Virus record (IMG/VR): IMGVR_UViG_3300023245_000006
Location: 1 to 64,000 of that record
Reading direction: 5' to 3' (one strand)
Length of the DNA stretch: 64,000 nucleotides
Source of the DNA: a virus
Shown: positions 3,564 to 59,154 of the stretch, piece by piece
Layout of the letters: each line of letters begins with the position of its first letter
Numbering within the stretch: the first letter of the stretch is position 1
Program-made: the position numbers and the translations under genes
Notes under the pieces: generated by a model
What the model saw: only the letters and a program-made list of their open reading frames with translations
What the model was told of the DNA's origin: nothing
The model's database searches: none

Positions 3564-3614
3564 AAATAAAAAATAATTTTTGAAATGTGGACGGAATTAT
3601 GTAAATATAAACAC

Positions 3615-8519: not shown

Positions 8520-8531
8520 ATAATATATCAA

Positions 8532-8539
8532 TACTTATA
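8532..8539 (-). promoter_or_regulatory. Late promoter TATAAGTA
   Basis: A perfect TATAAGTA on the - strand, 12 nt before the ATG at 8519. The same octamer precedes other late or structural genes here. Confidence 0.65.
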
Positions 8540-11173: not shown

Positions 11174-11180
11174 ATCTATA

Positions 11181-11205
11181 TATTTATACTTTGGTGTTAT
11201 AAGTA
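11181..11205. promoter_or_regulatory. Back-to-back late promoters
   Basis: TATAAATA on the - strand (11181-11188, 7 nt before the ArdC-like ATG at 11173) and TATAAGTA on the + strand (11198-11205, 6 nt before the ATG at 11212). Only 9 bp separate the two octamers. Both predict very short or absent 5' leaders. Confidence 0.7.
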
Positions 11206-11211
11206 TTGATT

Positions 11212-22814: not shown

Positions 22815-22898
22815 AAGTTAAAAACTATCATGCCTCCTTCCCCATGTCAAATTCTTTTTTATCGCTTGTGTCCCCCGGCACGAATAATTTTAGGCACG

Positions 22899-24809: not shown

Positions 24810-25061
24810 TCATTCCGTCAATGAACACTTTTTATATTTGTCAAATAACTCTTCCTGTGTAGGAAATTCTTTGCCGTCTTTCTTGTGATGGTTACGTTCA
24901 TCTTCCGGGGAAAAATCATGAGATGTCTTGATGGAGAGTCTATTTCCGTTAGAATCTTCAAAAAGATCACGGAAACACCCCATGCCGGGGGAAGTTCCGA
25001 CAAGTTGACTTTTGGCTATTAGTTGCATATTTTTTCTATCAAAAAGAGTTGTTTGTTTCAT
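24810..25061 (-). CDS. Small early protein, 83 aa
   Basis: MKQTTLFDRKNMQLIAKSQL..., hydrophilic, no recognised domain. Promoter TTGACT (25091-25096), 17 nt, TATAAA (25068-25073), then 6 nt to the ATG. Confidence 0.6.
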   Translation of the reverse strand: MKQTTLFDRKNMQLIAKSQLVGTSPGMGCFRDLFEDSNGNRLSIKTSHDFSPEDERNHHKKDGKEFPTQEELFDKYKKCSLTE

Positions 25062-25096
25062 GTGCCCTTTATAGTTTAATAACGTCTCTGAGTCAA
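25062..25096 (-). promoter_or_regulatory. Early promoter, leaderless arrangement
   Basis: TTGACT-N17-TATAAA with 6 nt to the ATG at 25061. Transcription would begin at or next to the start codon. Confidence 0.7.
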
Positions 25097-25135
25097 TATA
25101 AAAGATTACTTTTTGATCTATTTAAAAATCTTTCG

Positions 25136-25561
25136 TCATCTTAACTTCAAAGAATTCAACAGATTTTGAGCCTGATTGTTAAGAGTTTTTTCAGGAACAT
25201 TGTGAATATCCTTGTTACCATGTCGATTTTCAAGGACGACCGAAAAGATTTGATATCCGTGTTCTTCGGCGGCGTCCATATACCCGCTAATTTCTCTCTC
25301 TTGCGTGCTTGTGTTGGCCAGAATCACCAGAGATGCGCCACCTTGACAGGCATTGGTAAATTTCTCCATGCACGCTTTGTGAGCATTTCCAAGATGCGAT
25401 GCGTCAAATTTATACTCCCCGGTTGTATTATCTGTAAAATAATCATCGGCTGTACAAATAACCGGGGGAACCCCGTCGTGGAGATTTGCAATGTATTCTG
25501 CAAAGGTGGACTTTCCAGAACCGGAAATTCCTCGAATTACTATCACTTGTCGATTAGTCAT
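25136..25561 (-). CDS. P-loop kinase (AAA_33 / polynucleotide-kinase-like)
   Basis: 141 residues. Walker A GISGSGKST sits at the N-terminus, then TADDYFT and FDASHLGNAHKACMEKF, the order seen in N4BP2/PNK-like AAA_33 kinases. Substrates could be nucleotides or RNA ends. With two RNA ligases further along, an RNA-repair role is plausible but not shown. Confidence 0.8.
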   Translation of the reverse strand: MTNRQVIVIRGISGSGKSTFAEYIANLHDGVPPVICTADDYFTDNTTGEYKFDASHLGNAHKACMEKFTNACQGGASLVILANTSTQEREISGYMDAAEEHGYQIFSVVLENRHGNKDIHNVPEKTLNNQAQNLLNSLKLR

Positions 25562-25576
25562 TTGGTATAACTATTA

Positions 25577-25798
25577 TCAAGTAAGCAAGAAACAGTCTCC
25601 CGTTTCGGTATTGGCATAATATCCGCCGAACAAATTATCCTTATCTCGCACAAGTTTATAGCCTGCAAACATCTGGCAATATTTCTTGCAAGCGTCAACC
25701 GTGCCAGAAAAAATAATAGTCAAATCGGTAATATCCTTACCCTCATTGACGGCTTGAATATCGAGAAGGCGAACATCTACATTGCATTTTGGTTTCAT
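25577..25798 (-). CDS. Small early protein, 73 aa
   Basis: MKPKCNVDVRLLDIQAVNEG..., ending GGYYANTETGDCFLLT. It is beta-rich with no recognised family. A leaderless-type promoter lies just upstream. Confidence 0.6.
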   Translation of the reverse strand: MKPKCNVDVRLLDIQAVNEGKDITDLTIIFSGTVDACKKYCQMFAGYKLVRDKDNLFGGYYANTETGDCFLLT

Positions 25799-25834
25799 AA
25801 TTTGAATATATCTTAAAAATGAACTTTGTCAACC
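25796..25834 (-). promoter_or_regulatory. Early promoter module, copy 1
   Basis: TTGACA (25827-25832), 16 nt, TATATT (25805-25810), 6 nt, ATG. Thirty-nine nucleotides including the ATG are identical to 25967-26005. Confidence 0.75.
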
Positions 25835-25969
25835 AATAACTCGCAATTTTTTATAGATCACTCCATAGCCATTCTCCACGAATAGTTCCACAATTTGAAA
25901 GTTTGCCTCATGCGATTCCACCCAAGTAGATTGTGCCTTTAATGTTTTGAAGAGTTTAGTGTTCCACAT
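25829..25969 (-). CDS. Small early protein, 46 aa
   Basis: MWNTKLFKTLKAQSTWVESH and on to a TGA at 25829. It sits directly behind the duplicated promoter module, which is the main support. Its stop overlaps the next promoter. Function unknown. Confidence 0.55.
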   Translation of the reverse strand: MWNTKLFKTLKAQSTWVESHEANFQIVELFVENGYGVIYKKLRVIG

Positions 25970-26005
25970 AATTTGAATATATCTTAAAAATGAACTTTGT
26001 CAACC
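25967..26005 (-). promoter_or_regulatory. Early promoter module, copy 2
   Basis: TTGACA (25998-26003), 16 nt, TATATT (25976-25981), 6 nt, ATG at 25969. It is a direct duplicate of the 25796 module. Confidence 0.75.
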
Positions 26006-26171
26006 TATTTTTCTCAACTTTTAATCATTTGCATCATTTTCGTTGACGAAACCGCCGATATTATTTAGGATGATGAATTATTTTCATGGTTCGTTGTGAT
26101 ATTCCCGTTCAATTCGTTCCACAATAGAGTATCGTATAAAGATTGTCAAGCGTTTTTGCCATAATAAAAAG

Positions 26172-26244
26172 TGCGCCTGACTGGATTCGAACCAGTAACC
26201 AATCAGTTATGAGCCGACTGCTCTGACCATTGAGCTACAAGCGC
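26172..26244 (-). tRNA. tRNA with CAT anticodon (Met or lysidine-type Ile)
   Basis: On the - strand: acceptor GCGCTTG, D stem GCTC/GAGC, anticodon loop CTCATAA (CAT), T arm ACTGG-TTCGAAT-CCAGT, acceptor CAGGCGC with one G-U pair. All four arms form; CCA is not encoded. Phages often carry tRNA-Met or tRNA-Ile(CAT) genes, and the sequence alone does not separate the two. Confidence 0.9.
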
Positions 26245-26254
26245 ATTAAATCAG

Positions 26255-26404
26255 TTATCGACTACGCCAAAATTCACGCCCATGACGAATCTTGCGAGCA
26301 TAGAAGCTATCCTCGTAGGTAATCATAAAGATATGTTGACCGAACGGGGTAATCTTTGTTGGGAGGAACGCTTCGGATAAAAGAGTGAGTAGGTGTTTAA
26401 TCAT
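26255..26404 (-). CDS. Small early protein, 49 aa
   Basis: MIKHLLTLLSEAFLPTKITP and on, ending REFWRSR; stop just before the tRNA. Amphipathic N-terminal helix. Function unknown. Confidence 0.5.
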   Translation of the reverse strand: MIKHLLTLLSEAFLPTKITPFGQHIFMITYEDSFYARKIRHGREFWRSR

Positions 26405-26425
26405 GTTTAGGATATTGGTTGATTT

Positions 26426-26647
26426 TTAGATATTTGTCAATGTTAATCGATCCTTACGAAATTTGAATTCTAAAATTTCCACAAGATCTTCGTATTCGTC
26501 ATAACAACTCAGGGGGTTTGGAAATCCTTTAATATATACGAGAGAACGAATCTTTACCATATTTCCACTTGATGCACTAATTGCCAAGATGTTTTTGATG
26601 GGGAAGGTGATTAGACCTTCGGGACATTCGATTGTGATTGTTTTCAT
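26426..26647 (-). CDS. Small early protein, 73 aa
   Basis: MKTITIECPEGLITFPIKNIL..., a beta-strand-rich protein without a known domain. Upstream TTGACA and a TATACA-like -10 fit the early promoter pattern. Confidence 0.6.
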   Translation of the reverse strand: MKTITIECPEGLITFPIKNILAISASSGNMVKIRSLVYIKGFPNPLSCYDEYEDLVEILEFKFRKDRLTLTNI

Positions 26648-26689
26648 AATTTTGAATATAGTTATGTATAAATTAAAGCTCTCTCTTTG

Positions 26690-26866
26690 TCAATCTATTT
26701 TATTCGTCGTTATATAAATCCACACTCGACCATTCCATCCACATAAATCTTGAAAAATTGGATTCTTGACGACAATAATCGCTAACCGTTCAAAGTTATC
26801 TCGCCAGCGATTGCTTTTCTTGAACCTATTACGCGCATTCTCGTTTGTAATTTCTGTAATAGTCAT
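26690..26866 (-). CDS. Small early protein, 58 aa
   Basis: MTITEITNENARNRFKKSNR and on, ending TTNKID. The ATG overlaps the previous stop as ATGA, and the stop overlaps the promoter of the next gene. Basic; function unknown. Confidence 0.55.
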   Translation of the reverse strand: MTITEITNENARNRFKKSNRWRDNFERLAIIVVKNPIFQDLCGWNGRVWIYITTNKID

Positions 26867-27099
26867 TCTACGGGAAGATCAACATCATATTCGACAATCC
26901 ATTCATTTAAAACTCCATCAATGATAGGCATATCGTTTATTATATTCGGGAAGATTATCTGAGGTATAACATCTTGACATCCAACTACTTGTGAAGTCAC
27001 CGCCATTTGTGACGTTTGGAGTAAATGATAAAAATAATATCCAACAATTCCAATGGGAGCAAAAAGTTGAAAGGTGATAAAAATTTGGATAGCTTTCAT
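26863..27099 (-). CDS. Small membrane-anchored protein, 78 aa
   Basis: MKAIQIFITFQLFAPIGIVGYYFYHLLQ... gives one N-terminal membrane span, then an acidic soluble tail. Coupled by ATGA at both ends to its neighbours. Confidence 0.6.
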   Translation of the reverse strand: MKAIQIFITFQLFAPIGIVGYYFYHLLQTSQMAVTSQVVGCQDVIPQIIFPNIINDMPIIDGVLNEWIVEYDVDLPVE

Positions 27100-27293
27100 C
27101 GGTCAGATTGTCTAAAAAACCCACTATCCGTGTCAATGTCTGCCAGACCCAGATTTGTGGCCGCTAGAGAAATTTCATCTAACATGTCGGCATTCCAGTC
27201 TTTTTCTTCTTCTAAGATTTGTAAGACAGTAAAGGCAAAAATTTCTAAACTTGTCATTTTCTCGATATTTCTAAATTGGTTTTTGTTATTCAT
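27096..27293 (-). CDS. Small acidic early protein, 65 aa
   Basis: MNNKNQFRNIEKMTSLEIFA..., helical and acidic. First gene of a three-gene coupled set (ATGA junctions). Promoter TTGACA (27322-27327), 17 nt, TAATAC (27299-27304), 5 nt to the ATG. Confidence 0.6.
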   Translation of the reverse strand: MNNKNQFRNIEKMTSLEIFAFTVLQILEEEKDWNADMLDEISLAATNLGLADIDTDSGFFRQSDR

Positions 27294-27316
27294 AATTCGT
27301 ATTATTGTTTTTTTGG

Positions 27317-27652
27317 TTAAATGTCAAGACATTTTTTGTAGGCTGATACGATTCGACCACTTTTAATCTTGTCACCATCTTTGAATGGTTTACCTGTATT
27401 CCAGTACCATGATCCAGAAATCTGAATGATTGCAAATGGTTTAGGCAAGTATGCATTGATTCTTTTCTTGGTGGTTGCCGATTGTCTTCCGTGTGTGTTT
27501 ATAACAATAGACCCATCTTTCTTGAAGTGTAGAATATCGGTGCTATAGTATCGAATCATAACGCCATCGATTCGAGCATGTAGATTTGTTTTGCTTTCCA
27601 TCGATAGAAATGAACGACCATTAAGAAGTTTCTTTGCAAGATGTAGATCCAT
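27317..27652 (-). CDS. Conserved phage protein, 111 aa
   Basis: Starts MDLHLAKKLLNGRSFLS at 27652. YYSTDILHFKKDGSIVINTH followed by GRQSATTKKRINAYLP resembles a recurrent phage family with a D-G-x-I-x-L/I-N-T-x-G/H-x-R-x-T-T-K-x-R-x-N core. Role unknown. Confidence 0.65.
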   Translation of the reverse strand: MDLHLAKKLLNGRSFLSMESKTNLHARIDGVMIRYYSTDILHFKKDGSIVINTHGRQSATTKKRINAYLPKPFAIIQISGSWYWNTGKPFKDGDKIKSGRIVSAYKKCLDI

Positions 27653-27654
27653 GG

Positions 27655-27843
27655 CTAGAAGTATAGTAGATCTTCGAGATAATTGAAAGATTTTTCTAGT
27701 GAATAACTTTCCCATTTTCGAATAGTGTCCTCTAATTCTTGGTGCTCTTCCAGTGTGTCGTTTTCGGTGTAATTGTGGAGAATTCCGGCAAGGTCTTTTA
27801 CCTTGGTATTACCATGATTCTTGAGTAGGTCTTTTTTGTTCAT
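27655..27843 (-). CDS. Small early protein, 62 aa
   Basis: MNKKDLLKNHGNTKVKDLAG..., helical and acidic. Leaderless-type promoter upstream: TTGACA (27874-27879), 17 nt, TAGATA (27851-27856), 7 nt. Confidence 0.6.
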   Translation of the reverse strand: MNKKDLLKNHGNTKVKDLAGILHNYTENDTLEEHQELEDTIRKWESYSLEKSFNYLEDLLYF

Positions 27844-27853
27844 ATGATACTAT

Positions 27854-28021
27854 CTAGCGTATATCCGGAATCGTGTCAAGGATGTTCGGAAAGTTTTGTT
27901 GTTGTTTGGTGATTTTAGGGTCTTGTGACTTATCATCTTTAGGTAATGATGCACAAGATCCTAGGAAAAGAAAATAGAATAGTAAAAGAAAATAGAATAG
28001 GAAAAGAATTGTTTTAAACAT
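27854..28021 (-). CDS. Small lipoprotein, 55 aa
   Basis: ATG at 28021; signal MFKTILFLFYFLLLFYFLFL then GSC (lipobox LGSC), followed by a short polar tail to TAG at 27854. It follows a 12-codon ORF. The role could be envelope-related or superinfection exclusion, but this is open. Confidence 0.65.
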   Translation of the reverse strand: MFKTILFLFYFLLLFYFLFLGSCASLPKDDKSQDPKITKQQQNFPNILDTIPDIR

Positions 28022-28032
28022 AATATGCTTCA

Positions 28033-28071
28033 TTAATCCCGAGGAAATGGTTCGAATTTCATAATTTTCAT
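28033..28071 (-). CDS. 12-codon leaderless mini-ORF
   Basis: MKIMKFEPFPRD, with TTGACA (28101-28106), 17 nt, TACCTT (28078-28083) and 6 nt to the ATG. It precedes the lipoprotein gene by 11 nt and may couple its translation. Confidence 0.4.
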   Translation of the reverse strand: MKIMKFEPFPRD

Positions 28072-28109
28072 GTTGTTAAGGTAGTTTATTTTTGGATTTT
28101 TGTCAAGGG

Positions 28110-28346
28110 TTATCGAAATTCGAAATAGGGAAATTCTTGGTTTCCCTTTCGTACGAAAATTTCCAGTTGGTGACGACTCTTGAAAGAAAGACTCAGACGG
28201 CTATCGTTTACATCGGAAAGATAAAGAAACTCTCTCGGAATATGATTCCTGTGACTGTAATCAATGATCCATGTTTGAACATCACGATCTTTTTCATTCA
28301 GTTCCCGATTTAGATATTCCACACTTACACTTAGATTTATTTTCAT
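28110..28346 (-). CDS. Small early protein, 78 aa
   Basis: MKINLSVSVEYLNRELNEKD..., ending EFPYFEFR. No recognised domain. TATAAATA lies close upstream of the ATG. Confidence 0.6.
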   Translation of the reverse strand: MKINLSVSVEYLNRELNEKDRDVQTWIIDYSHRNHIPREFLYLSDVNDSRLSLSFKSRHQLEIFVRKGNQEFPYFEFR

Positions 28347-28674
28347 TTTATTTATATTGGTTATTGAGGAACCGAAGGACCATATCCTTTCGCCTCATGT
28401 TTAAGACTTTACTAAAATTCTTGAGATTGTCGAGATATATTTCAAAAAAGTTTTATCTATTTTAAATAAGATTTATCCATCTATCTATCTGAAAATATAC
28501 AAGAGGCTTCGCCCTTTCGGGTATACCCTCATTATGGGTTGTTTTTGGAATTTTGTCAAAACAATTATTTAAAAAGTTTTTTGGGTAAAATCATTTAAAT
28601 TTTAAATTGTCAAACAAAATTAAATACTTTACATGGCCTTAATATATTGCAATGCATTGAATCATATGTATTTA
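28347..28674. other. Gene-free stretch
   Basis: A+T-rich with short repeats (ATCTATCTATCT) and a hairpin-prone segment (GAGGCTTCGCCC, GGGTATACCC) near 28500-28540. No gene was seen. Confidence 0.5.
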
Positions 28675-28720
28675 TGAAAAGGGGCATAGATATAGACTAT
28701 GAAAACTCTATCTATGCCCC
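28675..28720 (-). terminator. Terminator hairpin
   Basis: GGGGCATAGATA (28681-28692) pairs with TATCTATGCCCC (28709-28720), followed by TTTTC on the - strand. Confidence 0.75.
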
Positions 28721-28781
28721 TCATGAACAACTAACTCAACTAACTCAACTAACTCAACTACACTGGAACTCTAGCCAATGA

Positions 28782-29480
28782 TTATTTTTCAACCAATGTG
28801 AAGGTTGACGTTTCTCGAACATCGTAACGATAGATTTTTTCATCTGTAAAAAAAACATATTTCTGTGCTTCTTTAGGGTCGATATAATGTTGCGCCAATC
28901 GAACCATCTCGGTGTATTCGATTGGATTATCAATTATTTCACGTTTTTGCAATCCGTGCTCTTTGACGTGTTCCGAAACATCATCATGATACGGTCCTCC
29001 ACAATAAAATAAAGGATTATTGTCTTGTAGTAGGGTAGCAATAACATACACCGTCTGAATAGGACGATCTTCCATAAAATACTCAGAAAAATCTGGGGAT
29101 CTATTATCAGGTTCATCGCGATACGATTTTTGCATCAAGTTAACACCATGTGACTTTTCAACACCATGTTCCAAATAAAAGGCATATGCCCTTGACACTG
29201 CTAGGTTTGCACCAGTCTTGAAACAGAAGTTGTCTTGATCCGAACAGGTTGCCAAGAAGTTTTCGGCGGTTTTAAAGAATACATACGTTTCACCACCTTT
29301 GGTTGCATACTCTGGTTTCTTACCGTGTTTCAATTTGAAACGATTGTTCCGATAAGTCAAAACCATTTTTTTATATGTAGGATGGTTTTGTTTATTGAGA
29401 ATTCGATAATGTATGATCTCAGCAGGGTACCCGTTGAGTTTCATGACATCCAACATTTCTTGTGTAGATAGTTTATTCAT
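28782..29480 (-). CDS. Unknown early protein, 232 aa
   Basis: Starts MNKLSTQEMLDVMKLNGYP at 29480, behind a leader of repeated AACA units ((CAAA)n at 29485-29510). Lys/Tyr-rich N-terminal half, mixed C-terminal half (PLFYCGGPYHDDVSEHVKEH). No domain recognised. Confidence 0.65.
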   Translation of the reverse strand: MNKLSTQEMLDVMKLNGYPAEIIHYRILNKQNHPTYKKMVLTYRNNRFKLKHGKKPEYATKGGETYVFFKTAENFLATCSDQDNFCFKTGANLAVSRAYAFYLEHGVEKSHGVNLMQKSYRDEPDNRSPDFSEYFMEDRPIQTVYVIATLLQDNNPLFYCGGPYHDDVSEHVKEHGLQKREIIDNPIEYTEMVRLAQHYIDPKEAQKYVFFTDEKIYRYDVRETSTFTLVEK

Positions 29481-29536
29481 CTGATTTTTGTTTGTTTGTT
29501 TGTTTGTTATCCGGTTTTGTTTGTTATTGGTGGTTG

Positions 29537-29570
29537 AGCCGGAATGACTATCACAATCATTCCGGCTCTT
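29537..29570 (-). terminator. Hairpin after rIIB
   Basis: GAGCCGGAATGA/TCATTCCGGCTC, a 12-bp perfect stem beyond the rIIB stop. There is no clear U-tract on the - strand, so termination is only inferred. Confidence 0.5.
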
Positions 29571-29590
29571 TACCACTACCTCTTTACCAC

Positions 29591-30505
29591 TCAATTTTTG
29601 ATGAATTGTCCTTTGTCATTTCGTTTGTTGTAGAACTTATGACCACAAGGTTTTGTTCCATAAATCTCTTCGCTGTCCTCGTCCCAATCTCCACCATTCG
29701 ATGAGTATAGATATTCATCGAATCCATTGTCCTCGTCCCAATCTCCACCATTCGATGAGTATAGATATTCATCGAATCCATTGTCCGAACGATTTCTCCA
29801 ATCCTCCTCGTATTCAGCAACGACTTCGTAGGTATTTGCCCTTGCCTTAGTATTTGCATAATCGCTCGGGACACTGACAACATCAGACGGATTGACCTTG
29901 ACAATCATCGTGTGGCCATTCGTATCTGAGAAGTTAGGCAGATAGGCCAAAGAGCAAAAGTGCAAGCCTGTAGAACAGGTTTGATCTTTGTTCTCATCCA
30001 CCAGATTGCGAGGCATCCAAGGCTTTTGACCAACCGAATTGTCAAACTTTCCAGAATGAATATCGTGGAAGTTTGCGCGAACATTTTTAAATGCAAGGAA
30101 GCACCCATCTTCGGTGATAGGCATTTCCCCTACTTCCAAAAAGTTATAGAGTTCATTGACCGCACGACTCGAAGGATTCTTCAAAAGATTCTCCAAGAAT
30201 TTAATAAGTGGTTCAACCGGAAGATCTTCCCGCATGAATTTCAAGATCCGAACGGTGAGCGAATTATGAAGAGGTTCCCCTGCATACATGATCGCACCGT
30301 CATTGATTTCGATGTTCTGTCCACCGTATTCTTTGAGACCTTGAGCAAGGTCAAGAAGTCCGGTGAGTTTGTTCCATTCTTTCGACTTGAGAACTTCAAG
30401 AACCTTTCGGTAATTTGGGTGATCGGTTTCAACCGTCAAAGGCTTGTTATCGATGCAAGCAGAGATTCGTCCGGTTCCGCTGATTGTGTAGGCTACTTGT
30501 TTCAT
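29591..30505 (-). CDS. rIIB: rIIB-like protein
   Basis: 304 residues. The block EMPITEDGCFLAFKNVRANF, then HSGKFDNSVGQKPWMPRNLVDE, CSTGLHFCSLAYLPNF and NPSDVVSVPSDY follow the order of the T4 rIIB family. It lies directly downstream of rIIA, as in T4. rII proteins protect against prophage exclusion and affect lysis timing; the mechanism is not settled. An internal 54-bp tandem duplication repeats DNGFDEYLYSSNGGDWDE. A TTGACA-N16-TAACAA promoter lies inside the end of rIIA, and the leader has (AAAACC)n repeats. Confidence 0.9.
   Translation of the reverse strand: MKQVAYTISGTGRISACIDNKPLTVETDHPNYRKVLEVLKSKEWNKLTGLLDLAQGLKEYGGQNIEINDGAIMYAGEPLHNSLTVRILKFMREDLPVEPLIKFLENLLKNPSSRAVNELYNFLEVGEMPITEDGCFLAFKNVRANFHDIHSGKFDNSVGQKPWMPRNLVDENKDQTCSTGLHFCSLAYLPNFSDTNGHTMIVKVNPSDVVSVPSDYANTKARANTYEVVAEYEEDWRNRSDNGFDEYLYSSNGGDWDEDNGFDEYLYSSNGGDWDEDSEEIYGTKPCGHKFYNKRNDKGQFIKN
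29674..29786 (-). repeat. 54-bp tandem duplication inside rIIB
   Basis: Two copies with period 54 (TGTCCTCGTCCC at 29674 and 29728), adding 18 codons without breaking the frame. Confidence 0.9.
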
Positions 30506-30509
30506 TTTA

Positions 30510-30553
30510 ATAGGTATTTGGTTTTGGTTTTGGTTTTGGTTTTGGTTTTGGTT
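30510..30553 (-). repeat. (AAAACC)n repeats in the rIIB leader
   Basis: About six GGTTTT units on the + strand, i.e. ACCAAA repeats in the transcript, ending shortly before the rIIB ATG. The leader lacks G and any Shine-Dalgarno site. Confidence 0.8.
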
Positions 30554-30574
30554 TGTATCCGTTCTTTAGGATGT

Positions 30575-32566: not shown

Positions 32567-32659
32567 GGTATTTTATTTGTGGTTTGTGGTTTGTGTTTAC
32601 GATTAAGAAAATATAGATTTTTAGGAAAAGGTCAAGAAAAATTTCAATGAACCATTTTA

Positions 32660-32905
32660 TTAAAATTCTAATTCGACTTTTCCGGTCCAGATTTTTGCGG
32701 TTCCTGCTTCGATATTATCGATACACCAATCTTGTCGATAGTGTCCAAGGGGTCGAGGATACGGATTTTTATTATCGCAGGAGGTTTCTTTAATAACAAA
32801 TCCTTTTTGACCTTCAAGAATCAATACGACTGTTTTGTCTGCGAATTGTATACAATATGGTTTTTTTTCTCCAAGGATTTGTGAAGGTGTAAGTTTTGAT
32901 TTCAT
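32660..32905 (-). CDS. Small early protein, 81 aa
   Basis: MKSKLTPSQILGEKKPYCIQ..., beta-rich, no recognised family. TTGACA lies upstream inside the stop of the next gene's unit. Confidence 0.6.
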   Translation of the reverse strand: MKSKLTPSQILGEKKPYCIQFADKTVVLILEGQKGFVIKETSCDNKNPYPRPLGHYRQDWCIDNIEAGTAKIWTGKVELEF

Positions 32906-32936
32906 GGTTTTAAGGTATTTTAGTTTTGATTAAATG

Positions 32937-33095
32937 TCAATCCTCATCTTCGAGTTCTTCACCTTCCGATGTCACAAGAGACCATCCAAGTTGTGTAAGT
33001 GCTTCGGTTCGAGGTTCTTGTCCTTCTTCAACAGAGAATTCAATCTTATCTGCTTCATCGAAGGTGCTCAGTAGTTTGTAGTTTTTTTCTTCCAT
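32937..33095 (-). CDS. Small acidic protein, 52 aa
   Basis: MEEKNYKLLSTFDEADKIEF and on, ending EELEDED. The G-free leader AAAACAAAACAAATAAAAAT precedes the ATG. The stop overlaps the -35 box of the downstream gene. Confidence 0.55.
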   Translation of the reverse strand: MEEKNYKLLSTFDEADKIEFSVEEGQEPRTEALTQLGWSLVTSEGEELEDED

Positions 33096-33136
33096 ATTTT
33101 AGTTTTATTTTTATTTGTTTTGTTTTAGATTTTTGT

Positions 33137-33367
33137 TTACCATATATCCACGAAAGTTCCGTGTACATCAGTCTGAACATTGTTGATCATATTTTCTAGA
33201 CTTTCTAAGTATTCCATCGATTCTTGGTCAGGGCTTCTACCTGTTTCGCAAACTTCACTTTGTTCGTCAATATCCAATATATCAACTTTGATTTCGCCTT
33301 CGGGAAAGTTACCAGATACTCCAGTAACGACCCCACCGTCAACTGTGATGATGATTCTTTTTGTCAT
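33137..33367 (-). CDS. Small early protein, 76 aa
   Basis: Starts MTKRIIITVDGGVVTGVSGN at 33367. Promoter TTGACA (33398-33403), 17 nt, TAATCG (33375-33380), 7 nt. The -35 region lies in the end of the upstream gene. Acidic, unknown. Confidence 0.6.
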   Translation of the reverse strand: MTKRIIITVDGGVVTGVSGNFPEGEIKVDILDIDEQSEVCETGRSPDQESMEYLESLENMINNVQTDVHGTFVDIW

Positions 33368-33377
33368 ATTATTACGA

Positions 33378-34052
33378 TTAGAGGATTTCTTGCATTTTGT
33401 CAATGCTTTTCTTCTGTGTTCCGTGGGCCGGAAAATAGATAATGTAATCTTTTCGTTCCATTTTTTGGCACAGTCCGCATTTTTCGCAGGTCATTGCATC
33501 GCGATAGGTGGCCGGACAGGCAAGGAACTTTTCGCCCTTGTATTCAAAGCTGGTGCGAGATTCGCCACTAGGAACTACTGCACAAACCGGAACACCATGT
33601 TTTGCAAGTTCAACGGCATGGTCCGGATCATTGGCCGAAAGATTGATAGAAAATCCACCGCTGATAGCAGTCTTGATTGTTGCAAGGTTATGGGGTGTAG
33701 GTTCATGGTGGGTGTAGGTAAATCCGCGTTTACCTTTGTTGGCACTGGTGAGCTTTTCAACAAAATCTTTATCGATTGCCCCGAAAAAGTTAGGAAGATC
33801 GCCTGCCTGATTGTGCCTCCATAGTTGACCCTTTGGAAAGGCACTAACACCTTTGAGGAAAGAAGCACCATCAATACCACGATCAGTATCCGTTACTTTG
33901 TTCCAGTGAATATTAAGAGGGCCGTTCTTTGCATAGCATCCTTTTTCATAGAAAGAACAAGTCGTAGGACAAGAATCTTTAGATGTAGTTGTAACCGGAA
34001 TAGGTCCTGTTTTGGAATTGCTAGATTTTCGAGTAATGTGGTATTTTGTCAT
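33378..34052 (-). CDS. Cys-rich conserved phage protein, 224 aa
   Basis: N-terminal CPTTCSFYEKGCYAKNGPLN, central FTYTHHEPTPHN, and C-terminal CPATYRDAMTCEKCGLC suggest bound metal or an iron-sulfur cluster, somewhat like radical-SAM-type phage proteins. Function unproven. Promoter TTGACT (34083-34088), 17 nt, TATTCT (34060-34065), 7 nt to the ATG. Confidence 0.7.
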   Translation of the reverse strand: MTKYHITRKSSNSKTGPIPVTTTSKDSCPTTCSFYEKGCYAKNGPLNIHWNKVTDTDRGIDGASFLKGVSAFPKGQLWRHNQAGDLPNFFGAIDKDFVEKLTSANKGKRGFTYTHHEPTPHNLATIKTAISGGFSINLSANDPDHAVELAKHGVPVCAVVPSGESRTSFEYKGEKFLACPATYRDAMTCEKCGLCQKMERKDYIIYFPAHGTQKKSIDKMQEIL

Positions 34053-34109
34053 GGATAGTAGAATAGTAAAAGTTTATGGTATAGTCAAGGCATTTTAATA
34101 AAAAGATAG

Positions 34110-34165
34110 TCTGTCCCCTCTCCTAAATCTTCTACCATTAAAAGACTCTGGAGAAGGGACAAACA
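34110..34165 (-). terminator. Terminator-like hairpin
   Basis: TGTCCC/GGGACA with GAGAAGG/CCTCTC pairing across a ~45-nt span, then CTATCTTTTTATT on the - strand. Confidence 0.6.
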
Positions 34166-34177
34166 AATCTATTTAGG

Positions 34178-34426
34178 TTAGAACCTACAGTTTGAACCGT
34201 TTCCGGCAATTACCTCAATTGGGCGAGACTTCTCGTTGATAATGACCTTGTTGACAGTCTCGCCTTCTTCGGCAAAACGATCATCCCGAGCACTTGCCCG
34301 ACTGGAATAAACGAGGGCGTTCTCCAAATTGGCCGTATAGACCGATTTTGTATTGCGATTTAGGAATCGTCCGGTTTTGATGTTTCGGATAACCCATGCT
34401 GTTGCTGTTTTTGTTTTTGTTTTCAT
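34178..34426 (-). CDS. Internal small gene, 82 aa, with own leaderless-type promoter
   Basis: ATG at 34426 with TTGACA (34457-34462), 16 nt, TACGAT (34435-34440), 8 nt. Sequence MKTKTKTATAWVIRNIKTGR and on. Expression as a separate product is likely. Confidence 0.5.
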   Translation of the reverse strand: MKTKTKTATAWVIRNIKTGRFLNRNTKSVYTANLENALVYSSRASARDDRFAEEGETVNKVIINEKSRPIEVIAGNGSNCRF

Positions 34427-34951
34427 ATTTTTTAATCGTATCAGTTTTTTAATATTTGTCAATTGTTTTGTGCAAATAAAGATATTTTTACCAGCCGAGC
34501 TAACGGTGAAGAGAGTTTCGAGAACTTTCTTAAATGCATTACTATCTTGCTCCTCGAAGTATCTTGGAGATTGTGGATAGTTGATGATCAAGAGTCCACC
34601 CCTTTTAATGCCCTTGTGTATCTCCATAAGGGCACGACCTTGCATTTTGGCATCAGACCATGTATTTGCAACATTAGAGGCATATACGACATCGTAGCTC
34701 GAACGTGCTACCTTTGTTACCATTCCAGGTTTCCGGTTATTCCCAAAGTCGTAGGCATCAACCTTAAATCCTAGATCATTTAAACGGTGTGCATGAATTT
34801 GATCGGGTCCGCACCCATAATCCAAAATATGAAGTTCTCTAGAAAGAACATCTTCTACGAATCGAGGGACGAGCGCATTCTTTCCGACGATGCCAGCAGA
34901 CCGTGCAGATTTGTTGGCTTTGATTATTTCGAGTGGTAATACTTTCATCAT
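34178..34951 (-). CDS. SAM methyltransferase fused in frame to a small early protein
   Basis: 257 residues. Residues ~1-165 form a class I methyltransferase (LHILDYGCGPDQIHAHRL, VVYASNVANTW, GGLLIINYPQ). The frame then runs without a stop into an 82-residue segment starting MKTKTKTATAWVIRN that has its own promoter and ATG (34426). The linker (TKQLTNIKKLIRLKN) is a translation of that promoter. This looks like two genes merged by loss of a stop. Leaderless-type promoter for the whole at 34952-34986. Confidence 0.75.
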   Translation of the reverse strand: MMKVLPLEIIKANKSARSAGIVGKNALVPRFVEDVLSRELHILDYGCGPDQIHAHRLNDLGFKVDAYDFGNNRKPGMVTKVARSSYDVVYASNVANTWSDAKMQGRALMEIHKGIKRGGLLIINYPQSPRYFEEQDSNAFKKVLETLFTVSSAGKNIFICTKQLTNIKKLIRLKNMKTKTKTATAWVIRNIKTGRFLNRNTKSVYTANLENALVYSSRASARDDRFAEEGETVNKVIINEKSRPIEVIAGNGSNCRF

Positions 34952-34975
34952 TTTTTAAGGTTATGTAATTTTTGT

Positions 34976-35206
34976 TTAGATGTCAAGGTTCGAAGTTTTG
35001 CAGACGAGAATTAATGCTCTTTTTCTAGGTCCATATGCAGAAGAATGAGATAATCTATAATACCCAGTGTCTCCGATTGGTCCAGATCCCGAAGCATTAG
35101 ATGATTTACTTTCTAAAAGTTTTTTGATTTCATTTTTATCGGCGATATCGATCACCTGATATTTTCCTTTAGGGTAGAATTGTTCGAGCGAAAGTTCTTT
35201 GGACAT
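34976..35206 (-). CDS. Small early protein, 76 aa
   Basis: MSKELSLEQFYPKGKYQVID..., no recognised domain. Promoter TTGACA (35236-35241), 16 nt, TAGTCT (35214-35219), 7 nt to the ATG. Confidence 0.6.
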   Translation of the reverse strand: MSKELSLEQFYPKGKYQVIDIADKNEIKKLLESKSSNASGSGPIGDTGYYRLSHSSAYGPRKRALILVCKTSNLDI

Positions 35207-35329
35207 GGATCAAAGACTAGGGGTTTTTACACAAATGTCAAGGACCGATTCCCAAAGAATGATTTTTTACTTTGGGAGATATTTCCCTTATATTTAAAAT
35301 CAATCGGTTCTTCCCCGAAAAGGAAATTT

Positions 35330-35638
35330 TCATTTGATAATTTTGATCTTGTAGCCAAGTAGTTTTTCCAGTTCGGCTACTGTAATGTCTTTGGAGGTTT
35401 GTGTTTTGATTTTAAACTCAGACTCCGTGTATTCCTTACCATTGATGTACCATGATTTATATCCATTTGGATCTTCAATTGCAGGTCCGTCTTCACGATG
35501 GAGATTACCATTGAGGTACCATGCACTATATCCATCGGAATCTTCAATGGCTGGTCCGTCTTCACGATGGAGATTGCCATTGAGGTACCATGATTTATGC
35601 CCATCCTCCACTTCGACTGTGTATGTGATTTTATTCAT
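35330..35638 (-). CDS. HREDGPA-repeat protein, paralogue 1 of 5
   Basis: 102 residues with W-Y-x-N-G-x-x-HREDGPA-x-E-x-x-x-G-Y units (MORN-like, about 17-22 residues) and the shared C-terminus YTESEFK...ITVAELEKLLGYKIK. It starts within the stop of paralogue 2 (ATGA), so the two are coupled. Similar repeats are common in large phages; function unknown. Confidence 0.8.
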   Translation of the reverse strand: MNKITYTVEVEDGHKSWYLNGNLHREDGPAIEDSDGYSAWYLNGNLHREDGPAIEDPNGYKSWYINGKEYTESEFKIKTQTSKDITVAELEKLLGYKIKIIK

Positions 35639-36012
35639 TTGATAATTTTGATCTTGTAACCAATTAGTTCTTCCAGTTCGACTACCGTAAGGTCTTTGGG
35701 TTTTTGTGTTTTGGCTTTAAACTCAGACTCCGTGTATTTCACACCATTGATGTACCATGCACTATATCCATTTGAATCTTCAATGGCTGGACCGTCTTCC
35801 CGGTGGAACTTATTATTGAGGTACCATGCACTATATCCATTTAGGCCCTCAAGTGCTGGTCCGTCTTCCCTGTGGAGTTCCCCGTTGAGGTACCATTGTT
35901 TATTCCCATTTGGATCTTCAACGGCTGGACCGTCTTCACGATGGAGTTTGCCATTGAGGTACCATGCACTATATCCGTCCTCTACTTCTACTGTGTATGT
36001 GATTTTATTCAT
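35635..36012 (-). CDS. HREDGPA-repeat protein, paralogue 2 of 5
   Basis: 125 residues with four repeat units. Own promoter TTGACA (36043-36048), 17 nt, TAATAT (36020-36025), 7 nt to the ATG. C-terminus LTVVELEELIGYKIKIIK. Confidence 0.8.
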   Translation of the reverse strand: MNKITYTVEVEDGYSAWYLNGKLHREDGPAVEDPNGNKQWYLNGELHREDGPALEGLNGYSAWYLNNKFHREDGPAIEDSNGYSAWYINGVKYTESEFKAKTQKPKDLTVVELEELIGYKIKIIK

Positions 36013-36048
36013 TTGATCTATATTAGTTTAGAGTTTGTTACGTGTCAA
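36013..36048 (-). promoter_or_regulatory. Representative early leaderless-type promoter
   Basis: TTGACA-N17-TAATAT and 7 nt to ATG 36012. The same layout recurs before 36371, 36801, 37297 and 37577. Confidence 0.75.
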
Positions 36049-36056
36049 GGCTATTT

Positions 36057-36371
36057 TCATGTTTTGGAGATAATTTTGATCTTGTAGCCAAGTAGTTTTT
36101 CGAGTTCGGCTACTGTGATGTCTTTGGAGGTTTGTATTTTGATTTTAAACTCAGACTCCGTATATTTCACACCATTGAGGTACCATGATTTATTCTCATT
36201 TGACCATTCAACGGCTGGTCCGTCTTCACGATGGAGTTCACCATTGAGGTACCATGATTTATGCCCATTTGAATCTTCAACGGCTGGACCGTCTTCCCGG
36301 TGGAGTTTACCATTGAGGTACCATTCTTTATAGCCATCCTCTACTTCGACTGTGTATGTGATTTTATTCAT
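36057..36371 (-). CDS. HREDGPA-repeat protein, paralogue 3 of 5
   Basis: 104 residues, three units. Promoter TTGACA (36401-36406), 17 nt, TAGTAT (36378-36383), 6 nt to the ATG. Confidence 0.8.
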   Translation of the reverse strand: MNKITYTVEVEDGYKEWYLNGKLHREDGPAVEDSNGHKSWYLNGELHREDGPAVEWSNENKSWYLNGVKYTESEFKIKIQTSKDITVAELEKLLGYKIKIISKT

Positions 36372-36414
36372 TTTTATATACTAGCTTAGGGTTTTATACG
36401 TGTCAAGGCCATTT

Positions 36415-36801
36415 TCATTTGATAATTTTGATCTTGTAGCCAAGTAGTTTTTCGAGTTCGGCTACTGTGATGTCTTTGGAGGTTTGTATTTTGATTTTAA
36501 ACTCAGACTCCGTATATTTCACACCATTGATGAACCATTTTTTAGTCCCATTTGAGTATTCAATGGCTGGTCCGTCTTCCCTATGGAGTTCACCATTGAT
36601 GTACCATGCATTATATCCACTATCTCCATTTGAGTATTCAACGGCTGGTCCGTCTTCACGATGGAGATTACCATTGATGAACCATGCACTATATCCACTT
36701 AAACCTTCAATGGCCGGACCATCTTCGCGATGGCGTTTACCATTGAGGTACCATGCACTATAGCCATCCTCTACTTCGACTGTGTATGTGATTTTATTCA
36801 T
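36415..36801 (-). CDS. HREDGPA-repeat protein, paralogue 4 of 5
   Basis: 128 residues, four units, one with an extra GDSGYNA insertion. Promoter TTGACA (36831-36836), 17 nt, TAGTAT (36808-36813), 6 nt. Confidence 0.8.
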   Translation of the reverse strand: MNKITYTVEVEDGYSAWYLNGKRHREDGPAIEGLSGYSAWFINGNLHREDGPAVEYSNGDSGYNAWYINGELHREDGPAIEYSNGTKKWFINGVKYTESEFKIKIQTSKDITVAELEKLLGYKIKIIK

Positions 36802-36844
36802 TTTTATATACTAGCTTAGGGTTTTATATATGTCAAGGCAGTTT

Positions 36845-37297
36845 TCATGTTTTGGAGATAATTTTAATCTTGTAGCCAAGTAGTTTTTCCAGTTCGGCTA
36901 CGGTAATGTTTTTGGTTTTTTGTGTTTTGATTTTAAACTCAGACTCCGTGTGTTTCTCACCATTGATGAACCATGATTTATCCCCATTTGAGTATTCAAC
37001 GGCTGGTCCGTCCTCCCGATGGAGTTTGCCATTGAGGTACCATTCTTTATATCCATTTGGACTTTCAACGGCTGGACCGTCTTCCCTGTGGAGTTTACCA
37101 TTGAGGAACCATTTTTTAGTCCCATTTGAGTATTCAATGGCTGGTCCGTCTTCACGATGGAGTTCACCATTGATGAACCATGCACTATATCCATCTGAAT
37201 TTAGAACGGCTGGACCGTCTTCCCGATGGAACTTATCATTGAGGTACCATGCACTATAGCCATCCTCTACTTCGACTGTGTATGTGATTTTATTCAT
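36845..37297 (-). CDS. HREDGPA-repeat protein, paralogue 5 of 5
   Basis: 150 residues, five units, the longest member. Promoter TTGACG (37327-37332), 17 nt, TAGTAT (37304-37309), 6 nt. Members differ mostly in repeat number, suggesting gene duplication plus unit recombination. Confidence 0.8.
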   Translation of the reverse strand: MNKITYTVEVEDGYSAWYLNDKFHREDGPAVLNSDGYSAWFINGELHREDGPAIEYSNGTKKWFLNGKLHREDGPAVESPNGYKEWYLNGKLHREDGPAVEYSNGDKSWFINGEKHTESEFKIKTQKTKNITVAELEKLLGYKIKIISKT

Positions 37298-37328
37298 TTT
37301 TATATACTAGGTTAGAGTTTTATATACG

Positions 37329-37577
37329 TCAAACACAATTTTCACAAATCTCAACCGTCGTTTCGGCACTCTGATAATATGTATTTTTCCAGCCAAAATT
37401 TGACCTATATGCACTGGTGACATATTCTCCGGTGGTATATTTACGATAACCATAGGCAATGTGAGAAAGAACACGGTCCACGGTGCCGATGATTACGGTT
37501 GTTGCTCTTCCATATCCGTTCCTGCGGGCAATGATGTTTGCTCGGAGCTGTTGCTGTGGGATGATTTCTTGTTTCAT
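37329..37577 (-). CDS. Small early protein, 82 aa
   Basis: MKQEIIPQQQLRANIIARRN..., Tyr/Arg-rich, unknown. Promoter TTGACA (37607-37612), 17 nt, TAGTTT (37584-37589), 6 nt to the ATG. Confidence 0.65.
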   Translation of the reverse strand: MKQEIIPQQQLRANIIARRNGYGRATTVIIGTVDRVLSHIAYGYRKYTTGEYVTSAYRSNFGWKNTYYQSAETTVEICENCV

Positions 37578-39112
37578 ACCTACAAACTACGCACAATTTA
37601 CAACCATGTCAAATAAAATTATTCTCTAGGGGAAAAGTAATGATCCAAAGTTGTAAATAGTTTATTTAAAATCATTTAGAAAAGTTCAGAAATTTCTCGT
37701 TTTTTAGAACCACTAAGTCTTTTCCCTTTGTGCAATAAATTTAGACTATCATGGATTTGAAATTTTGTCACCAACAATCTTTATGTATTTTTCAGAATTT
37801 TAAAAAAATTCAACCCTGTCTCCCCTTGTAACACAATAGCAAAACCTTGAAATTTGTCAAGACTAAATTTTCAGAATTTTCAGAATTTTCAGAAAACTCG
37901 GCCCGTGCCAATTTTTCTGAATTTTCTGAAAGGGGTAGGTGTTCCCTGTGTGGTATAAATTTATTCTTACATATTTTGAGAATTTTGTCAATCTTTTAAA
38001 TTTTCTGCAATTGTAAACCATTGATTTACAAGCATTTACGATGTTTCAGAAGATTTTTCTTTACATTTTCGAAATGGATTCGGTAATTTTTTTACATGAT
38101 AAATGAAGGAGGCGAAATTAAATAAACGTGTATGTAGTTGGTTTTCAGTAACTTACGAATAATCGGATAGCCGAAGTTCGTAAGTCATTGGTAATCATTG
38201 GTTTATGCAAGTGGTTGTAAGTCATTGGTAATCATTGGTTTATGCAAGTGGTTGTAAGTCATTGGTAATCATTGGTTTACAGAAAAGTCATAAGTGGTTG
38301 AAAATCAGTAACTTATCTAAGTCATTGATATTCAAAGACTTAGATTATTACACAAAAATAGTAAATACTAAAAAATAGTAAATACTCTTTATTACACAAA
38401 AACCGTAAAAACCTGTAAAACCTGTAAAACCTGTGAAAAAATCGTCCTACGGACAAAACATCCACAAATTTTTAAATGGTCGGTGCTATTTTGATACTAT
38501 GAACAAAAAAGAAAAAAACCTATATTATTTTTCATTTGTTCTCCTATTAATATAATCTGGTTCTTTTCTTTGGTAAACCTTAGTGTACAAAAACAGATCT
38601 ATGTTCCCTTATACCTGTCACACTGTCTATATGAAAATAGTCTAGGGAAATTTTTTTTTTTAGATCGTCTGGTTCTGTTCTTGGTTTGAGAAAGATACTT
38701 TTTCACATATCCTTTTATAATGAATCACCATATATATATGGTCTTGTTTATATTATTAATGATCCTATATACATTTTCTTGATCTAATAGATATATCATA
38801 TCACCAGATCGTTTATTCTTTATTAATTCGAGTCTCATAATTTTTTGGTTCATATTGATATCAGTGTTGTATTCTTACACCATGTTCTATTTCTACACCA
38901 TGTTCTATTATTACACCTAGTTCCTTTTCATTCTATTCTCATTATAGTATAGGGTCTTATCTATATCTACGATCTTAATTAACCAGATGTTCTATTTTAG
39001 TTCTTTTTTTTTTGCACACGATTCCAACAAAGGTTTCGGGTTTTGCCCTTTTCTTCTACCCACCGGACATTTTGGTTTTTCATATTTTAATTTGTTATAG
39101 ATAAAAAACCTA
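37578..39112. other. Gene-free, repeat-rich region; candidate origin or regulatory region
   Basis: About 1.5 kb with no credible gene. It contains an inverted copy of the promoter-like dispersed repeat (37718-37772); TTTTCAGAATTTTCAGAA-type repeats facing TTTCTGAATTTTCTGAAA (37865-37935); three direct repeats of GTAAGTCATTGGTAATCATT (about 38177-38285); AAAACCTGT repeats (38405-38435); and CACCATGTTCTATT repeats (38878-38925). It is strongly A+T-rich. Iteron-like repeats suit an origin, but this is inference. Confidence 0.6.
38177..38300 (+). repeat. Iteron-like direct repeats
   Basis: GTAAGTCATTGGTAATCATT followed by GGTTTATGCAAGTGGTT repeats with a 37-nt period, two full copies and a third diverging after GGTTTA. 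Confidence 0.85.
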
Positions 39113-42069: not shown

Positions 42070-42076
42070 ATGGAAT

Positions 42077-42084
42077 TACTTATA
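42077..42084 (-). promoter_or_regulatory. Late promoter TATAAGTA
   Basis: Perfect octamer 7 nt before the ATG at 42069, on the - strand. Confidence 0.7.
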
Positions 42085-42144
42085 GCGGTTTAAATATATT
42101 CAGAGGATATGATCAAAGAAAATGGTCTTTTAGTGTCTAATTAG

Positions 42145-42152
42145 TATAAGTA
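42145..42152 (+). promoter_or_regulatory. Late promoter TATAAGTA
   Basis: Perfect octamer 11 nt before the ATG at 42164, diverging from the site at 42077. Confidence 0.7.
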
Positions 42153-42163
42153 GTTGATATATT

Positions 42164-42889: not shown

Positions 42890-42908
42890 CCAAAAACAAA
42901 ACAAAATT

Positions 42909-43286: not shown

Positions 43287-43290
43287 TGTC

Positions 43291-44156: not shown

Positions 44157-44158
44157 TT

Positions 44159-46762: not shown

Positions 46763-46803
46763 GGTTTTAATATATCAGAATTTTCAAATAAGGTCAATCA
46801 ATT

Positions 46804-48711: not shown

Positions 48712-48762
48712 AAGGTGCATTATATATAATAACGTAGATATGTCAAGAATTATGAAAATTTA

Positions 48763-53392: not shown

Positions 53393-53451
53393 TTTTTTAA
53401 ATTTTTCTAAATGGTTCACATATATACTTACACATAAAATACAATGGTTTG

Positions 53452-55793: not shown

Positions 55794-55823
55794 GACCTGA
55801 CTATATCTAAATTTATAAAAATG

Positions 55824-59111: not shown

Positions 59112-59154
59112 TCCCGAAATATATATAAACCATGTAGGTTAGTCAAGAAAATCA

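What the first reader, a model, noticed from the sequence alone, without database searches (positions are those of the whole stretch)
25062..37612. A whole early region built on leaderless-type promoters
At least 16 leftward promoters have TTGAC(A/T/G)-N16/17-TANNNT with only 5-8 nt between the -10 box and the ATG (e.g. 25061, 25798, 25969, 27293, 27843, 28071, 33367, 34052, 34951, 35206, 36012, 36371, 36801, 37297, 37577). Transcription should start at or beside the ATG. Shine-Dalgarno sites are absent. Systematic leaderless expression across a phage early region is unusual.
Basis: partly seen in the sequence, partly recalled or inferred. Interest (0 to 1): 0.8.

Follow-up and report, generated by a model that had tools for sequence, protein, structure and literature searches.

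The report
Phage genes start without ribosome-binding sites
In this uncultured T4-like phage, most early genes carry their own promoter so close to the start codon that the messenger RNA should begin at the AUG itself, and the rest of the sequenced genome also largely lacks the usual ribosome-binding sites, so the phage seems to make its proteins without the standard bacterial way of starting translation.

Summary
In 25.06-37.61 kb, 18 of 30 leftward starts have TTGAC(N)-N16/17-TANNN(T) ending 5-8 nt, mostly 6, before an ATG. With a strict pattern the region holds 13 sites against 0.13 per shuffle; the whole 96.7 kb record holds 27 against 0.8. Homology fixes the N-termini of several of these genes, so those start codons are right. 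Shine-Dalgarno sequences are absent from the region and near background across the record. Leaderless sigma70-like promoters continue to 80 kb. T4-late-like TATAAGTA boxes sit 6-12 nt before the ATG of six large ORFs, so late mRNAs should be (near-)leaderless too. The remaining early genes mostly use stop-start overlaps or G-poor, unstructured leaders. The best reading is a phage whose translation is almost wholly Shine-Dalgarno-independent. A syntenic relative (G002) shares the trait. A distant T4-like virus (G010) shows a denser early array but has Shine-Dalgarno sites on its other genes. T4, S-PM2, HTVC008M and NiceHouse lack the trait; Thermus phage phiYS40 shows it more weakly. So this is a striking, probably recurrent variant of a known kind. 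Host and transcript ends are unknown.

The parts
25062..25096 (-). leaderless promoter for gene 24810-25061: TTGACT-N17-TATAAA-N6-ATG
25799..25832 (-). leaderless promoter for 25577-25798: TTGACA-N16-TATATT-N6-ATG; its TGA is the stop codon of gene 25829-25969; identical to the next one
25970..26003 (-). leaderless promoter for 25829-25969, identical copy of 25799-25832
26405..26440 (-). weaker leaderless promoter for 26255-26404: TTGACA-N17-CAATAT-N7-ATG
27294..27327 (-). leaderless promoter for 27096-27293: TTGACA-N17-TAATAC-N5-ATG
27844..27879 (-). leaderless promoter for 27655-27843: TTGACA-N17-TAGATA-N7-ATG
28072..28106 (-). leaderless promoter TTGACA-N17-TACCTT-N6-ATG; the ATG (28071) opens a 12-codon ORF that overlaps (TAATG) the start of 27854-28033
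32906..32940 (-). leaderless promoter for 32660-32905: TTGACA-N17-TACCTT-N6-ATG; its TGA is the stop of gene 32937-33095
33368..33403 (-). leaderless promoter for 33137-33367: TTGACA-N17-TAATCG-N7-ATG, inside the 3' end of the preceding gene
34053..34088 (-). leaderless promoter for 33378-34052 (DUF7227): TTGACT-N17-TATTCT-N7-ATG
   Evidence: N-terminus fixed by PF23872 (protein 3-220 = model 2-220)
34427..34462 (-). promoter inside ORF 34178-34951: TTGACA-N16-TACGAT-N8-ATG, in-frame 82-codon ORF downstream
34952..34986 (-). leaderless promoter for 34178-34951: TTGACA-N17-TAACCT-N6-ATG
35207..35241 (-). leaderless promoter for 34976-35206: TTGACA-N16-TAGTCT-N7-ATG
36013..36048 (-). leaderless promoter for 35635-36012 (MNKITYTVEVEDG family): TTGACA-N17-TAATAT-N7-ATG
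36372..36406 (-). leaderless promoter for 36057-36371 (same family): TTGACA-N17-TAGTAT-N6-ATG
36802..36836 (-). leaderless promoter for 36415-36801 (same family): TTGACA-N17-TAGTAT-N6-ATG
37298..37332 (-). leaderless promoter for 36845-37297 (same family): TTGACG-N17-TAGTAT-N6-ATG; its TGA is the stop of gene 37329-37577
37578..37612 (-). leaderless promoter for 37329-37577: TTGACA-N17-TAGTTT-N6-ATG
22815..22850 (-). leaderless promoter for 22458-22814: TTGACA-N17-TAGTTT-N7-ATG
46763..46797 (-). leaderless promoter for 46241-46762: TTGACC-N17-TATATT-N6-ATG
48712..48746 (-). leaderless promoter for 48562-48711: TTGACA-N16-TATAAT-N7-ATG
55794..55827 (-). leaderless promoter for RNA ligase gene 54747-55793: TTGACA-N16-TATAGT-N6-ATG
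   Evidence: N-terminus fixed by PF21189 (protein 3-86 = model 1-91)
59112..59146 (-). leaderless promoter for 58677-59111: TTGACT-N17-TATATT-N6-ATG
32567..32635 (-). rIIA control region: TTGACC-N16-TATTTT then 41 nt to the ATG; G-poor, unstructured, SD-free leader
   Evidence: -45..-1: 1 G in 45, MFE 0.0
30506..30550 (-). rIIB leader of CAAAAC-type repeats, no G in 45 nt, no SD, no predicted structure
42070..42084 (-). T4-late-like box TATAAGTA, 7 nt before the ATG of 39424-42069 (881 aa)
42145..42163 (+). T4-late-like box TATAAGTA, 11 nt before the ATG of 42164-42889
11174..11211 (.). divergent pair of late-like boxes: TATAAATA (minus, 7 nt to ATG 11173) and TATAAGTA (plus, 6 nt to ATG 11212)
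8520..8539 (-). T4-late-like box TATAAGTA, 12 nt before the ATG of 8013-8519

Best explanation
The window is part of a T4-like phage that makes its proteins almost entirely without Shine-Dalgarno (SD) sequences. Most small early genes, and many DNA-metabolism genes, have their own strong sigma70-type promoter (TTGACA-N16/17-TANNNT) placed so that the A of the ATG is the transcription start, or within 1-2 nt of it. The mRNA is then leaderless and would be started by ribosomes binding the 5'-terminal AUG (70S-type initiation). Genes lacking such a promoter are reached by ribosomes arriving from the upstream gene (ATGA, TAATG, TAA-T-ATG junctions) or have leaders almost without G and without structure. 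Late genes carry a T4-late-like TATAAGTA box 6-12 nt before the ATG, giving leaders of roughly 0-7 nt. Shown here: the sequences, their spacing, their excess over chance, the missing SDs, and their presence in relatives. Inferred: the actual transcript ends, the 70S route, the timing classes, and that the host translates such mRNAs well.
For: Sharp 6-7 nt spacing and strong excess over shuffles, with the backwards pattern at 0. 29% of 119 genes score as leaderless against 1.6% of control ATGs; phiYS40 gives 18%, and T4, S-PM2, HTVC008M, NiceHouse and Mel-JY01 give 0-4%. SD 4-mers: 0 of 24 starts in the region, 10% record-wide against 5% at internal ATGs and 49% in T4. Start codons are independently fixed for DUF7227 and the RNA ligase, and the promoter-bearing MNKITYTVEVEDG genes share their N-terminus from the ATG. 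In relative G002, rIIB (58% identical) starts at TTGACA-N17-TAGTAT-N6-ATG. Few SD-led alternative starts occur downstream: 3 in 25 genes. TATAAGTA: 6 of 8 copies lie 6-12 nt before an ORF >=100 codons, against 2.7% for permuted motifs, and 0 of 279 permutations reach it. G-poor, structure-free leaders at rIIA, rIIB and others.
Against: No transcript has been mapped. A discriminator can vary by 1-3 nt, so 5' ends a few nt inside or outside the ATG are possible. Read-through transcripts from upstream promoters could supply leadered mRNAs. The host is unknown, so its ability to translate leaderless mRNA is untested. About 70% of the record's genes do not score as sigma70-leaderless and are explained by weaker arguments. 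In 1-24.7 kb, 6 of 27 called starts have an SD-like 4-mer, and gene starts there are less secure.
Confidence: 0.8

Rival explanations
1. Host-driven: the phage simply mirrors a host lineage whose own genes lack SD sites and are often leaderless, so nothing phage-specific is happening. This concerns the cause and is compatible with the best explanation's account of how expression works.
For: SDs are near background along the whole record, not just in early genes. The relatives G002 and G006 are also SD-poor at 7%. Leaderless genes are about 20-46% of genes in Actinobacteria and Deinococcus-Thermus (PMC3160421).
Against: G006, though SD-poor, has almost no leaderless promoters. G010 uses leaderless early genes yet has SD 4-mers at 55/148 of its other starts against 51/686 internal ATGs, so phages can choose per gene class. 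A Bacteroidota-type promoter is not enriched.
Confidence: 0.45
2. Compaction only: promoters were pushed against the start codons because intergenic space is minimal; the mRNAs that matter are read-through transcripts from upstream, and leaderless starts are by-products.
For: Gaps are 30-45 bp, and in three cases the TGA of the -35 box is the stop codon of the upstream gene.
Against: Compaction alone would not fix the distance at 6-7 nt, and read-through mRNAs would still lack SDs at these starts. T4-like controls do not show it.
Confidence: 0.1
3. Early-specific switch: leaderless mRNAs are used early to exploit 70S ribosomes or to escape control of SD initiation, whereas late genes use standard initiation.
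For: G010: about 21 leaderless genes packed in its 132-146 kb early-like region while the other genes have SDs.
Against: In G000 the late-like promoters are also within 12 nt of the ATG and late genes lack SDs.
Confidence: 0.2
4. Chance or over-reading of AT-rich sequence.
For: AT-rich DNA gives many TANNNT matches; four listed -10 boxes are imperfect.
Against: Shuffles keeping dinucleotides give 0.13 sites against 13 observed in the region; T4, at similar GC, has no gene at the higher score cut-off.
Confidence: 0.02

Closest known systems
Thermus phage phiYS40
   Same: A large lytic phage with many sigma70-like sites 6-8 nt before the ATG: 18% of genes in the 50 kb tested. From memory, its middle and late transcripts were mapped as leaderless; the original paper was not read here.
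   Different: phiYS40 also has strong SDs (GGAGG 15 observed against 2.3 expected upstream). G000 has none above background, has more leaderless genes, and carries T4-late-like boxes.
Leaderless ('TA-led', -10 adjacent to ORF) genes of Actinobacteria and Deinococcus-Thermus (PMC3160421; PMC12340547)
   Same: A TANNNT box about 10 bp upstream of the start codon with no SD; shown in Deinococcus to act as the -10 of a promoter for leaderless mRNA (PMC12340547).
   Different: There it is a fraction of cellular genes (about 20-46%), and in Deinococcus the -10 can act without a -35. Here most sites have a near-perfect TTGACA and sit in a phage.
T4 early and late promoters
   Same: rIIA/rIIB and a late-type TATAA(A/G)TA box; sigma70-type early promoters.
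   Different: T4 starts have SDs (49% SD 4-mers) and 1% of genes score leaderless.
IMG/VR G010 (IMGVR_UViG_3300023174_000064)
   Same: About 21 small genes with TTGACA-N17-TANNNT-N6-ATG in one 13 kb block.
   Different: Distant virus: only three weak protein matches to G000; SDs present on its other genes.
IMG/VR G002/G003
   Same: Relatives (rIIA 42% identical; in G002 structural genes 26-53% identical and in the same order) with leaderless promoters and SD-poor starts.
   Different: Fewer sites found; which gene has a leaderless start differs (rIIB leaderless in G002, leadered in G000).

Membership tests
Leaderless gene with adjacent -10 (Zheng 2011; Zhong 2025) | TANNNT -10 a few nt upstream of the start codon, no SD | tested here: met
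Leaderless gene with adjacent -10 (Zheng 2011; Zhong 2025) | transcript 5' end at or within a few nt of the start codon | not testable with these tools
   needs 5'-end RNA mapping
phiYS40-type systematic leaderless phage | large share of phage genes with promoter directly before the ATG | tested here: met
   29% against 18% in phiYS40 and 0-4% in T4, S-PM2, HTVC008M, Mel-JY01, NiceHouse, RM378
phiYS40-type systematic leaderless phage | relationship by descent to Thermus phages | tested here: inconclusive
   Thermus phages appear only among weak TnpB matches (about 23-28% identity); DNA of window 20-44 kb has no match in the phage set
T4-like myovirus | rIIA/rIIB homologues | tested here: met
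   phrog_612 5.5e-118, phrog_609 4.5e-75
T4-like myovirus | late promoter TATAAATA-type before late genes | tested here: met
   variant TATAAGTA, 6 of 8 copies, (TATAAATA alone not enriched)
T4-like myovirus | SD-led starts as in T4 | tested here: not met
Bacteroidota-type SD-less expression | TTTG / TANNTTTG promoters | tested here: not met
   TANNTTTG 3 observed, 6.8 expected

The most novel reading that the evidence does not exclude
A T4-like phage lineage has dropped Shine-Dalgarno initiation throughout: leaderless early and middle mRNAs, near-leaderless late mRNAs from a T4-type late promoter moved against the ATG, and stop-start coupling or G-free leaders for the rest, so that infection runs largely on 70S or otherwise SD-independent initiation. 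A distant virus (G010) has independently, or by gene exchange, built a leaderless early array.
Probability: 0.5. Interest if true: 0.7.

Novelty: new variant of a known kind. Interest (0 to 1): 0.55.

Why it matters
Leaderless translation is usually studied gene by gene. A virus that appears to rely on it for whole gene classes would be a natural test of how well ribosomes start on 5'-terminal AUGs, and of whether a phage can sidestep SD initiation in its host. It also affects annotation: gene callers that expect SDs or leaders may misplace starts here. G010 offers the cleanest contrast, with leaderless early-type genes and SD-led other genes in one genome.

Tried and rejected
Host identification failed. 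Two genome-contig scans with the TnpB-like proteins found no relative, plasmid and phage matches are too distant, the genome search draws no relatives for a virus record, and IMG/VR names carry no host.

A Bacteroidota host was rejected as an explanation of the promoters, because TTTG/TANNTTTG is not enriched.

A phage-encoded initiator tRNA as a helper for leaderless mRNA was considered. The record has many tRNAs, but neither tRNA-Met looks like an initiator, since neither has the GGG/CCC anticodon stem.

MazF-type 'stress ribosomes' as a mechanism were set aside; a review says other laboratories could not reproduce the original claim (PMC9031893).

The trait does not belong to all viruses sharing a gene with this one: G006 (RNA ligase 54% identical) and G004 do not have it.

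In the 80 loci shown only one (L087, from G010) had an array.

TATAAATA on its own is not enriched before ATGs in G000; only TATAAGTA is.
Full report
What the window is. The 64 kb window is part of G000, a 96.7 kb IMG/VR virus record. It encodes rIIA and rIIB homologues, RNA ligases and a DNA ligase, and a structural block at 82-96 kb that is syntenic with G002, whose own structural genes include one matching T4-like baseplate wedge proteins at about 23% identity. It is a T4-like virus far from cultured ones: DNA of 20-44 kb has no match in 50,697 phage records.

The observation. I examined every plausible leftward start in 24.8-37.7 kb. Of 30 starts, 18 have TTGAC(N)-N16/17-TANNN(T) (one of them CAATAT) ending 5-8 nt before the ATG. 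The strict form occurs 13 times in the region against 0.13 per dinucleotide shuffle, and 27 times in the record against 0.8. On the coding strand the next ATG after such a promoter is 6 or 7 nt away in 24 cases; the opposite strand and reversed sequence show no peak. With a standard 6-nt discriminator this puts +1 on the A of the ATG (established promoter geometry, not measured here).

Are the starts right? Three independent checks say yes. The DUF7227 model begins at residue 3 of gene 33378-34052. The N-terminal OB domain of the RNA ligase family begins at residue 3 of 54747-55793. The MNKITYTVEVEDG paralogues are alike from the ATG onward; four of the five have this promoter and the fifth starts at an ATGA overlap. 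SD-led alternatives within 35 codons downstream occur only three times in 25 genes.

SD sites. In the region 0 of 24 called starts have GGAG, GAGG or AGGA in the SD window. Across the record it is 12 of 119 (10%), against 5% at internal in-frame ATGs; T4 has 49%, S-PM2 37%, HTVC008M 41%. In 1-24.7 kb the figure is 6 of 27, so a few SD-led genes may exist there.

Beyond the named interval. The same promoters occur at 46-80 kb, including an RNA ligase gene. TATAAGTA, a T4-late-like box, occurs eight times in the record; six copies lie 6-12 nt before the ATG of ORFs of 168-1507 codons. Permuted motifs do this 2.7% of the time, and none of 279 permutations reaches six. If +1 lies about 6 nt after the box, as in T4 (recalled), these leaders would be about 0-7 nt.

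The other early genes. Several starts sit on stop-start junctions: ATGA at 26866, 27099 and 35638; TAATG at 28033; TAG-CC-ATG at 27652; elsewhere TAA-T-ATG at 45227, 47943, 48169, 51680 and 88061. rIIA, rIIB, 29480, 33095 and 62164 have leaders with 0-4 G in 45 nt and predicted folding energy near zero; rIIA has a sigma70-like promoter 41 nt upstream, with weaker candidates 74 nt upstream of rIIB and 101 nt upstream of 62164. Two starts, 26647 and 28346, remain unclear. A review describes 70S scanning as working from unstructured leaders and from upstream genes, and leaderless mRNAs as bound mostly by 70S particles (PMC9031893). That gives one simple mechanism for all these classes, but it is an inference.

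Modularity. The promoter at 25799-25832 is repeated exactly at 25970-26003 before a different gene; the promoters of three tandem paralogues (36371, 36801, 37297) are near-copies. In three places the TGA inside the -35 box is the stop codon of the upstream gene (coordinates). The ORF 34178-34951 reads straight through a second such promoter, with an in-frame ATG at 34426, suggesting a gene fused to its neighbour.

Relatives and controls. G002 and G003 have the promoters, and rIIB of G002 is leaderless while rIIB of G000 is not: the architecture persists while gene assignments turn over. G006 and G004 lack it. A pattern scan of viral contigs found G010, a 146 kb virus with T4-like portal, head and baseplate proteins and only three weak protein matches to G000. 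It has about 21 small genes with TTGACA-N17-TANNNT-N6/7-ATG at 133-145 kb, while its remaining genes have SD 4-mers at 55/148 starts against 51/686 internal ATGs. Of the cultured phages tested, only phiYS40 stands out at 18%; its leaderless middle and late transcripts are from memory.

What is known. Leaderless genes are about 20-46% of genes in Actinobacteria and Deinococcus-Thermus (PMC3160421), and the adjacent -10 box has been shown to be the promoter in Deinococcus (PMC12340547). One paper remarks that phage transcripts are 'often leaderless' (PMC5312081). So the kind is known; the extent, the T4-like setting and the near-total lack of SDs are the new part.

Limits. There are no RNA data; the host is unknown; G000 is a fragment; the gene caller was a simple codon-based script, so gene counts are approximate.

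Noticed in passing
L012 3033-12946 (G000 66033-75946, outside the window): 22 predicted tRNA genes in 10 kb plus one tRNA-Met at window 26171-26244; neither tRNA-Met looks like an initiator.
   Followed up: partly
window 51682-54126: DNA ligase gene split in two ORFs, each carrying part of an intein splicing domain, with another ORF (52526-53227) between them: looks like a split intein with an inserted homing-type gene.
   Followed up: no
window 3585-7649: 1354-aa ORF matching ribonucleotide reductase at its C-terminus and terminase/recombinase-like ATPases at its N-terminus; probably interrupted by an intein.
   Followed up: no
window 15953-17575 and 56957-58342: Two TnpB-like (IS605/Cas12f-like) proteins with no close relative found in bacterial genomes.
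   Followed up: partly
window 35330-37297: Five tandem paralogues of a repeat protein (MNKITYTVEVEDG...WYLNGKLHREDGPA), four with their own similar leaderless promoter.
   Followed up: partly
window 34178-34951: Methyltransferase-like ORF that runs in frame through a second leaderless promoter into what looks like a separate 82-aa gene.
   Followed up: no
G010 (IMGVR_UViG_3300023174_000064) 132000-146037: Array of about 21 leaderless small genes in a block at 56% GC, whereas the whole contig is 40% GC: early-like region of different base composition from the rest.
   Followed up: partly
window 42000-44200: Local rise in G+C to 49% in an otherwise 36% genome, over ORFs 42164-44156.
   Followed up: no
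upstream of window 29480 (about 29510-29550): Perfect 12-bp hairpin GAGCCGGAATGA/TCATTCCGGCTC just before a C/A-rich leader, without a T run.
   Followed up: no
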